From an uncultured Acidimicrobiales bacterium (GTDB lineage Bacteria; Actinomycetota; Acidimicrobiia; Acidimicrobiales; SZUA-35): a stretch of DNA of 36,946 nucleotides. Positions 31,799-32,776 of this stretch are shown here, in pieces. Numbering within the stretch: position 1 is the first letter of the stretch; each line of letters starts with the position of its first letter. Where the stretch lies: contig CALIFY010000017.1 of assembly GCA_938021675.1 (NCBI GenBank), positions 1-36,946 of the forward strand. Reading direction: 5' to 3'. Made by a program: the position numbers and the translations under genes. The notes beneath the pieces are model-generated. The model was not told where the DNA came from and did no database searches. It saw nothing but the letters and a program-made list of their open reading frames with translations.

Positions 31799-32776
31799 GT
31801 GAGCGAATTCGTCTCCGGTCGGTCGGAACAACCCCCCGCAGACTACATCGAACAGACAACCCGCCTGTACAACTCGCTCGGCTACGACCGGTACCGGTGG
31901 GCCGAACGGAGCAGCCCGCCGCCGTTCACGCCGTTGACCAAGCCGTTACCGGAGTGCCGAATCACCCTCGTCGGCTCAGGGGGAGTCTACCGGCGTGGGC
32001 AGGTGGCGTTTCACACCAAAGACGACACGTCGATTCGGGTACTCCCATCTGAGACCGCTTCCGCCGAACTGCGGACGGCTCACTTCGCCTATGACCAAAC
32101 CGACGCCAGGGCGGACCCCAACTGCGTTTTTCCACTCGATCGACTGCATGAGCTAGCGGCGCGTGGCGAGATCGGTGGCGTGACGAGCGAAGCCTACGGA
32201 TTCATGGGCGGGATATACTCCGTTCGCAGACTTGAGACCGAGACCGCACCAACCCTCGTTGAACGGTGCGCCGCCCAAAAACCCGACGTGGTGCTTCTCA
32301 TCCCCGTTTGACCGGTATGCCACCAGTCGGTCGGTCTGATCGCACGCCATCTCGAAGCGGCCGGACTACCGACCATCGGGTTCACGTCGGCCCGGACGAT
32401 AACGGCGGCAGCCAATCCACCGCGTTCGGTATTCGTGGACGGGCCGCTTGGCCACACCACCGGGGCTCCCCACGATCCCGAGGGGCAACGACAGCTGTTG
32501 CTCGACGGCCTACGGGCTGGTCATGCCATCGATGAACCGGGAACGATCGTCGACCTCCCATACCGGTGGCACGACGACGAGTGGCGAGCCGATCCTCTGT
32601 CGTGGAGTAGGACCCGACAAGACACCGGTCAGACCGGAGTCCCCGCCGGCGACACCCGCACCAGCAGATCGCCCCAACCCCAGTATCAGTCCGACGACGA
32701 CCGGACGGCGGCGGCCTCGGTCAGCTGGGACGACCAGTGCAAGGTCTGTCTCGGCTTGGACCGGCCCGGAGGCTAG
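31799..32776 (+). CDS. Selenoprotein of the PrdB/GrdB (D-proline/glycine/sarcosine/betaine reductase) family, in-frame TGA = Sec171
   Basis: One reading frame runs from GTG 31799 to TAG 32774-32776 with a single internal TGA at 32309-32311. Read as Sec it gives a 325-aa protein. Before the TGA the protein tracks D-proline reductase subunit PrdB: 'FTPLTKPLPECRITLVGSGG', 'RGQVAFHTKDDTSIRVLPSE', 'AHFAYDQTDARADPNCVFPLDRLHELAARGEI', 'YGFMGGIYS', 'KPDVVLLIPV'. After it follow P-V-C-H-Q-S-V-G and 'RHLEAAGLPTIGFTSAR', which is the conserved segment after the redox centre. The motif is U-x-x-C-H, as in PrdB (U-G-T-C-H). Family proteins reduce C-N or similar bonds or act as thiol/selenol oxidoreductases. 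The aerobic actinobacterial substrate is unknown. An unusual C-terminal tail carries C-K-V-C. Confidence 0.85.
32309..32311 (+). other. Selenocysteine codon (TGA) in U-P-V-C-H
   Basis: The TGA interrupts the most conserved part of the protein exactly where PrdB-family members have Sec or Cys. A weak stem GACCG (32310-32314) with CGGTC follows directly and could be part of a bacterial SECIS, but the element cannot be confirmed by eye. No selA, selB, selC or selD is in the window. Confidence 0.8.

What the first reader, a model, noticed from the sequence alone, without database searches (positions are those of the whole stretch)
31799..32776. PrdB/GrdB-family selenoprotein hidden by an in-frame TGA
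Seen: one frame covers 326 codons with a single TGA at 32309-32311, and the coding pattern continues across it. The TGA falls in I-P-V-[TGA]-P-V-C-H-Q-S-V. Known: Clostridial PrdB has U-G-T-C-H at the same place within the same flanking motifs. Inferred: TGA is read as Sec171, so standard annotation would truncate this gene at 170 aa and lose the rest. A PrdB relative without any prdA/prdC/grd partners nearby implies a function other than Stickland fermentation.
Basis: partly seen in the sequence, partly recalled or inferred. Interest (0 to 1): 0.85.

Follow-up and report, generated by a model that had tools for sequence, protein, structure and literature searches.

The report
PrdA-less PrdB-like selenoprotein
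The stop codon in the middle of this gene very probably encodes selenocysteine, and the protein belongs to a branch, found in several bacterial phyla, of relatives of the proline reductase subunit PrdB; where we could check, that enzyme's partner subunit was absent, so its chemistry remains to be discovered.

Summary
The frame 31799-32776 (+) has one in-frame TGA (codon 171). The same TGA, in P-V-U-P-V-C-H-Q-[ST], was read in 42 of 42 orthologue genomes and in 80 of 80 kept named loci from six or seven phyla; the two sets overlap. Constraint is similar on both sides of the TGA. The genome carries selA, selB, tRNA-Sec and a selD that is itself TGA-interrupted. A SECIS-like hairpin after the TGA shows compensatory changes across the family, but in the window's clade it has two mismatches, and the window's RNA does not fold better than shuffles.

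It is PrdB-like over nearly the whole PrdB domain, but not a PrdB by NCBI's cut-off (160 against 300 bits; a true PrdB scores 425). No PrdA or GrdE homologue was found in its genome or in any of the 42 orthologue genomes. It forms a separate clade (support 98) with a C-terminal extension, usually holding CxxC.

PrdB selenoproteins in marine metagenomes have been reported since 2005, so Sec in this family is not new. The PrdA-less clade with its tail is a new variant. The likely function is a dithiol-driven Sec reductase without a pyruvoyl group; its substrate is unknown.

The parts
31799..32776 (+). Selenoprotein gene, 325 aa with Sec171; GTG start, TAG stop
   Evidence: only start candidate in the frame near the aligned starts of relatives
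31916..32569 (+). PrdB-like domain, residues 40-257, aligns over 218 of 241 residues of a true PrdB at 38% identity
32309..32311 (+). In-frame TGA, Sec171, first residue of the U-x-x-C motif
32318..32320 (+). Cys174, probable resolving cysteine of the U-x-x-C-H motif (role inferred)
   Evidence: invariant in alignments
32322..32340 (+). Family-wide SECIS-like hairpin (7 pairs, 5-nt loop); in the window 5 of 7 pairs, with U.U and C.A mismatches
32328..32342 (+). Alternative hairpin CGGUC[GGUCU]GAUCG, complete in the window and in all 21 sequences of its clade tested
   Evidence: four of five pairs never vary, so this is weak evidence
32570..32773 (+). C-terminal extension absent from the three true PrdBs aligned
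32738..32749 (+). C-terminal CxxC, Cys314 and Cys317
   Evidence: CxxC in the tail of 66 of 78 named loci and 26 of 29 unnamed ones

Best explanation
A genuine selenoprotein of the PrdB/GrdB superfamily that has no pyruvoyl partner subunit. Shown by sequence: conserved TGA codon, full Sec machinery in the genome, constraint continuing after the TGA, PrdB-type domain, invariant U-x-x-C-H, no PrdA/GrdE homologue found. Inferred: the selenolate of Sec171 attacks an electrophilic or oxidised small substrate, Cys174 closes a selenenylsulfide, and this is reopened by the C-terminal CxxC and/or thioredoxin. It would thus be a dithiol-dependent Sec reductase that does not use the Schiff base proposed for D-proline and glycine reductases. 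The substrate is not identified. My rough odds: selenoprotein 0.95; not a D-proline reductase 0.85; the reductase mechanism as stated 0.45.
For: TGA at the same codon in 42 of 42 orthologue genomes and 80 of 80 kept named loci. selA and selB over their cut-offs, tRNA-Sec 67.3 bits against 47 and called tRNA-SeC by ARAGORN, selD with its own TGA in G-U-G-C-K. SelB over cut-off in 40 of 42 orthologue genomes against 48 of 106 others. Similar constraint before and after the TGA. Synonymous codons +1 to +14 after the TGA unusually fixed: mean top-codon share 0.77 over 7 four- or six-fold sites against 0.53 over 55 elsewhere. Hairpin with compensatory changes at 3 of 7 pairs in 46 sequences (limits in the full report). 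PrdB homology over the whole domain. PF09338 in 0 of 42 orthologue genomes; TIGR04480 absent from G000 while the same search finds it in two prd plasmids. Separate clade, support 98. Confident model, mean pLDDT 90.9.
Against: No protein or selenium was measured. The window's own RNA does not fold better than shuffles (z 0.73 and 0.15) and the family hairpin has two mismatches there. The 46 sequences were chosen without the U.U mismatch, which favours one of the seven pairs; and two of the five measures there are reached by shuffles (36 and 240 of 500). Two of 42 orthologue genomes (G008, G010) show no SelB over cut-off (both drafts). CxxC is absent from the tail of 12 of 78 named loci, so it is not essential everywhere. 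No conserved partner gene points to a substrate. No solved structure matches well.
Confidence: 0.6

Rival explanations
1. A D-proline reductase whose PrdA subunit is encoded elsewhere or too diverged to be found.
For: PrdB domain aligns along nearly its full length at 38% identity with the same Sec position. Peptoclostridium prdB on its plasmid also has no listed prdA within 4 kb (the gene table is incomplete), so distance between the two genes is possible.
Against: PF09338 and TIGR04480 find nothing in G000 (95% complete) nor in any of the 42 orthologue genomes, yet both ring in the same 9 of 148 relatives (TIGR04480 there only weakly, below its cut-off) and TIGR04480 rings strongly in two prd plasmids. 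TIGR04483 score about half the cut-off while true PrdB scores 424.7. Separate clade.
Confidence: 0.08
2. A general Sec thiol oxidoreductase or peroxidase that repairs oxidised proteins or low-molecular thiols, with no specific small substrate.
For: U-x-x-C motif plus C-terminal CxxC. In Acidobacteriota the gene lies beside, and divergent from, an MsrB-type gene in 13 of 18 loci (one copy profile-tested), and one Cys relative lies beside selO.
Against: 78 invariant columns across 29 orthologues, many far from the motif, suggest a specific substrate pocket; but those 29 are close relatives, so this is weak.
Confidence: 0.3
3. A reductive C-X cleaving enzyme like fluoroacetate reductase FarB, whose Sec attacks carbon directly and needs no pyruvoyl group.
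For: FarB is described as a GrdB relative whose FarE partner lacks the pyruvoyl-forming cysteines (PMC10838667, passages), so pyruvoyl-free chemistry has been proposed in this superfamily.
Against: FarB still has a FarE partner; here no GrdE homologue was found. No transporter stood out among conserved neighbours (neighbours mostly read by eye).
Confidence: 0.2
4. A pseudogene or sequencing error at the TGA.
For: None found beyond the stop itself.
Against: Same TGA in every orthologue read, across six or seven phyla, and similar constraint downstream.
Confidence: 0.02

Closest known systems
PrdB, Sec subunit of D-proline reductase (TIGR04483)
   Same: Whole domain, Sec at the aligned codon, U-x-x-C-H
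   Different: U-P-V-C-H-Q instead of U-G-T-C-H-R; half the family score; no PrdA found; extra N-terminus and a C-terminal extension, usually with CxxC
Marine metagenome 'PrdB' selenoproteins (PMC1088965: 42 genes; PMC2398784: 235; passages read)
   Same: Sec-containing, UxxC, PrdB-like; this clade includes marine Acidimicrobiia such as MedAcidi-G2B (L165), so it is probably part of those counts (inference)
   Different: The Sargasso passage explains the family as D-proline ring cleavage; the passages I saw do not discuss PrdA. Cys homologues are counted there (1 and 110), in the family at large
GrdB / FarB family (PF07355)
   Same: PF07355 match above cut-off, 31.1 against 22 bits
   Different: Only 98 residues match; no GrdE homologue found in the genome (GrdA was not searched)
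NCBI 'glycine/sarcosine/betaine reductase selenoprotein B family protein' of Roseomonas and Haematobacter
   Same: 33-35% identity, no prd or grd gene listed beside them, P-[VI]-C-H-Q
   Different: Cys (TGC) at the Sec position and outside the clade

Membership tests
Selenoprotein | In-frame UGA conserved with coding constraint on both sides | tested here: met
Selenoprotein | selA, selB, selC, selD in the genome | tested here: met
Selenoprotein | SECIS hairpin downstream of the UGA | tested here: inconclusive
   supported for the family; the window's clade has two mismatches and an alternative hairpin, and the window itself does not fold better than shuffles
Selenoprotein | Cys homologues at the same place | tested here: met
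   none among the clade members read
Selenoprotein | Selenium in the protein | not testable with these tools
   needs 75Se labelling or mass spectrometry
PrdB (D-proline reductase) | Score above the TIGR04483 cut-off | tested here: not met
   160.3 against 300 bits; true PrdB 424.7
PrdB (D-proline reductase) | PrdA pyruvoyl proprotein encoded in the genome | tested here: not met
   with positive control; assembly 95% complete
PrdB (D-proline reductase) | Sec in U-x-x-C-H at the aligned position | tested here: met
PrdB (D-proline reductase) | Reduces D-proline | not testable with these tools
   enzyme assay needed
GrdB (PF07355) | Pfam gathering score | tested here: met
   31.1 against 22 bits, residues 47-144 only
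GrdB (PF07355) | GrdE-type partner (PF09338) | tested here: not met
UGSC family (NF041046) | Family score | tested here: not met
   not among the five families listed for the window protein at E up to 1 (HMMER's filters drop most weak matches)

The most novel reading that the evidence does not exclude
A Sec-only clade of pyruvoyl-free reductases, spread through Acidimicrobiia, Acidobacteriota, Binatota, Myxococcota, Chloroflexota and Pseudomonadota, at least partly in oxygen-respiring bacteria. It would use Sec chemistry on an unknown substrate with a built-in CxxC reductant, and would be one reason these lineages keep the Sec machinery. The marine 'proline reductase' selenoproteins would then largely not be proline reductases.
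Probability: 0.4. Interest if true: 0.65.

Novelty: new variant of a known kind. Interest (0 to 1): 0.5.

Why it matters
'Proline reductase' makes up 6.4% of 4324 selenoprotein genes in one ocean survey (PMC9402790, passage read), and the Sargasso Sea paper explains the family as D-proline ring cleavage (PMC1088965, passage read). In the 42 Acidimicrobiales orthologue genomes examined here the gene occurs without any PrdA homologue found, and the window's genome has a haem-copper oxidase. A widely spread selenoenzyme may therefore carry a wrong functional name, and a defined protein is now available to test it. Every clade member read here has Sec and none has Cys, which suggests that selenium is needed for the reaction itself.

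Tried and rejected
Pseudogene or sequencing error: rejected by conservation. True PrdB: rejected by score and by absence of PrdA. A partner gene from neighbourhoods: in the window's family the gene often sits near an acyl-CoA synthetase, an SDR and an enoyl-CoA hydratase (names from my reading of the sequences, not profile-tested except the window's hydratase), but other families have other neighbours, so no obligate partner. My first ORF caller picked antisense frames in this GC-rich DNA and was replaced. Thermodynamic folding of the window alone did not show the hairpin. Rfam gave nothing (one chance-level match). Profile search of the PDB gave no hit. Foldseek gave TM-scores of 0.36 or less in the 50 rows shown, and VIA-align only middling Z (7.5 or less) to Rossmann-like folds; I draw no fold kinship from these. 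Phage records have no match. A second Rfam hit for tRNA-Sec (C54, 49.1 bits) is tRNA-Ser by ARAGORN. The C-terminal second TGA in some marine loci is an ordinary stop: relatives have TAA or TAG there. Distance of the CxxC tail from Sec171 in the model could not be measured, as coordinates are not given. TIGR04480 over 27 Actinomycetota genomes with PrdB-like genes rang nowhere, control included, so that search alone shows nothing; supplies the positive control. A draw of 396 Actinomycetota genomes at E 1e-25 gave 58 with a match, but outside G000 the best was 39% identical, so the clade itself is rare in the phylum outside the window's relatives. Papers: eight searches listed none that by title or abstract start describes a PrdA-less PrdB; I read passages only, never a whole paper, and most subscription papers are not held.

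Full report
WHAT IS THERE. The frame 31799-32776 on the + strand encodes 325 residues from GTG to TAG with one in-frame TGA at codon 171. The motif is I-P-V-U-P-V-C-H-Q-S-V, as reported. Because the window is GC-rich and full of long spurious frames, I did not rely on frame length.

IS THE TGA READ THROUGH. A search of 148 related genomes found a match in 66. In 42 of them the best match has E of 5e-72 or lower; I call these the orthologue genomes. All 42 read U in P-V-U-P-V-C-H-Q-[ST]: 30, the other 12. A scan of named genomes with a query built only from the part before the TGA, so not biased towards Sec, kept the best 80 of 287 relatives. All 80 read U: 78 by script, L116 and L169, which that script missed. 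The 207 not kept were not seen. No member with Cys appeared in this clade. The 78 script-read loci fall into Actinomycetota 37, Acidobacteriota 18, Pseudomonadota 8, Candidatus Binatota 6, Myxococcota 4, Chloroflexota 2, Campylobacterota 1 and 2 without phylum. Labels are the records' own; the single Campylobacterota record sits beside Binatia in the tree and is doubtful. Named and unnamed sets overlap and are not independent. Against six close relatives, differences per codon position are similar before and after the TGA (0.26/0.16/0.56 and 0.25/0.20/0.55).

MACHINERY. The genome (4.4 Mb, 99 contigs, 95% complete) has tRNA-Sec (67.3 bits, gathering 47; ARAGORN tRNA-SeC), selA and selB side by side on contig C28 (404 bits against 267.9; 285 against 242) and selD on C65 (373 bits against 125) with its own TGA in G-U-G-C-K. 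SelB is over its cut-off in 40 of the 42 orthologue genomes and in 48 of the other 106 (Fisher p 2.4e-9; genomes are related, so the p value is too small).

SECIS. In 29 orthologues synonymous codons +1 to +14 after the TGA are unusually fixed: mean share of the top codon 0.77 over 7 four- or six-fold sites against 0.53 over 55 elsewhere. Over 80 distinct sequences a 7-pair hairpin with a five-base loop begins at the 14th base counted from the T of the TGA; five pairs hold in 97.5-100% and two in 66%. In 46 distinct sequences from which the U.U mismatch had been excluded by choice, 98.4% of cells are paired and three pairs change on both sides (T-A to C-G in 8, T-A to A-T in 5, G-C to A-T in 1). 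Sliding the partner strand destroys the pairing, and no shuffle of 500 reaches the share of paired cells, the number of changed cells or the covariation score; but the number of pairs changed on both sides is reached by 36 and the number of pair types by 240 of 500. In 21 sequences of the window's clade two of these pairs are broken (U.U in 21, C.A in 18), while another hairpin, CGGUC[GGUCU]GAUCG, is complete in all 21. That second hairpin hardly varies, so pairing is not demonstrated there. Some sequences, such as L034, can form both, which would allow a gradual switch; this is inference. Thermodynamic folding favours the first hairpin in one Acidobacteriota, one Binatia-like and one Gammaproteobacteria member (z -2.3, -3.0, -3.6), less in L034 (-0.8), and not in the window (0.15).

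WHAT FAMILY. NCBIfam's best match is PrdB, 160.3 bits over residues 40-258, below its cut-off of 300; a true PrdB from a Terrisporobacter plasmid scores 424.7, while three other clade members score 145 to 180. The window protein and that PrdB align over 218 residues at 38% identity, and three PrdBs have TGA in U-G-T-C-H at the aligned codon. True PrdB ends near residue 257 of the window protein; the last 68 residues are extra and hold C-x-x-C in 66 of 78 named loci and 26 of 29 unnamed ones. A marine Acidimicrobiia group lacks it, the frame ending earlier at an ordinary stop. A quick tree of 56 sequences puts all 29 sampled members of the clade on one side of a branch (support 98), apart from true PrdB (100) and from several solitary Sec and Cys paralogues (some paralogues sit on long branches).

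NO PARTNER. PF09338 (PrdA/GrdE) and TIGR04480 (PrdA) find nothing in the window's genome. Both ring in the same 9 of 148 relatives (TIGR04480 only weakly, 26-36 bits against 700), none of them among the 42 orthologue genomes; TIGR04480 rings strongly in two plasmids with true prdA and prdB. In those two plasmids prdA lies one small gene before prdB; in Peptoclostridium it is not listed within 4 kb, so distance alone is not proof. Neighbourhoods of 41 loci in the window's order and 54 named loci show only lineage-specific neighbours. In Acidobacteriota the gene stands divergently beside an MsrB-type gene in 13 of 18 loci (one copy confirmed as SelR domain). The window's genome has a haem-copper oxidase, so it is probably able to respire oxygen.

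STRUCTURE. The AlphaFold2 model from 29 sequences (Sec given as Cys) is confident, pLDDT 90.9. Sec171 lies between strand 164-168 and helix 172-187. No PDB chain matches by sequence profile, and fold comparisons give only middling scores.

HOW IT LIKELY WORKS. Shown: Sec codon, U-x-x-C-H, PrdB domain, no pyruvoyl subunit found. Known: in D-proline reductase the reaction is thought to run on a pyruvoyl-proline adduct attacked by Sec (PMC10298544, passages, which call the mechanism putative). Inferred: without a pyruvoyl group this protein must use Sec on a substrate that is electrophilic by itself, or on an oxidised sulfur or oxygen species, resolve through Cys174, and be re-reduced through the tail CxxC or thioredoxin. 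GrdB's own CxxC is said to protect its Sec (PMC10838667, passage), a possible parallel for the tail. FarB in the same paper is a precedent for a GrdB relative proposed to act without a pyruvoyl group.

WHAT IS KNOWN. Sec-containing PrdB-like proteins were the third commonest known selenoprotein family in the Sargasso Sea (42 genes, 1 Cys homologue; PMC1088965, passages) and number 235 in GOS, with 110 Cys homologues (PMC2398784, passages); a 2026 review lists D-proline reductase TIGR04483 with UxxC (PMC13188914, passages). So the Sec reading adds a member to a known kind. The PrdA-less, tail-bearing clade, its separation from true PrdB and its apparent lack of Cys forms I did not find described in the searches. 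I rate it a new variant of a known kind.

Noticed in passing
L092, L093 (G058:C57, G078:C17): 9 of 148 relatives in the same order carry a GrdE-type protein (PF09338); in the one locus looked at (L093) a GrdB-type frame with TGA in U-G-T-G-T-R-C lies nearby. Possible true glycine/betaine-type reductases in Acidimicrobiales.
   Followed up: partly
G000:C65:22154-23071 (L094): The genome's selD is itself interrupted by TGA in G-U-G-C-K, so SelD is probably a selenoprotein.
   Followed up: yes
window:32322-32342 and relatives: The SECIS hairpin seems to have been replaced by an overlapping one in the window's clade, with intermediate sequences able to form both.
   Followed up: partly
L123, L125, L129, L130, L167 and others: In Acidobacteriota the gene lies divergently beside an MsrB-type gene (13 of 18 loci).
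   Followed up: partly
L198:4968-7353 (Roseomonas plasmid): A Cys form of the PrdB-like protein is the neighbour of selO.
   Followed up: no
L189, L190: Paralogues with U-P-L-D-H: the cysteine of U-x-x-C is replaced by Asp although the TGA is kept.
   Followed up: no
L176, L177, L178, L180, L181: In another family of the same phylum (f77) a PrdB-like gene, with TGA in four of the five loci and none in L178, follows a YchF-like GTPase gene (name from reading the sequence).
   Followed up: no
L164: A record titled Klebsiella pneumoniae MAG holds a clade member; the label is probably wrong.
   Followed up: no
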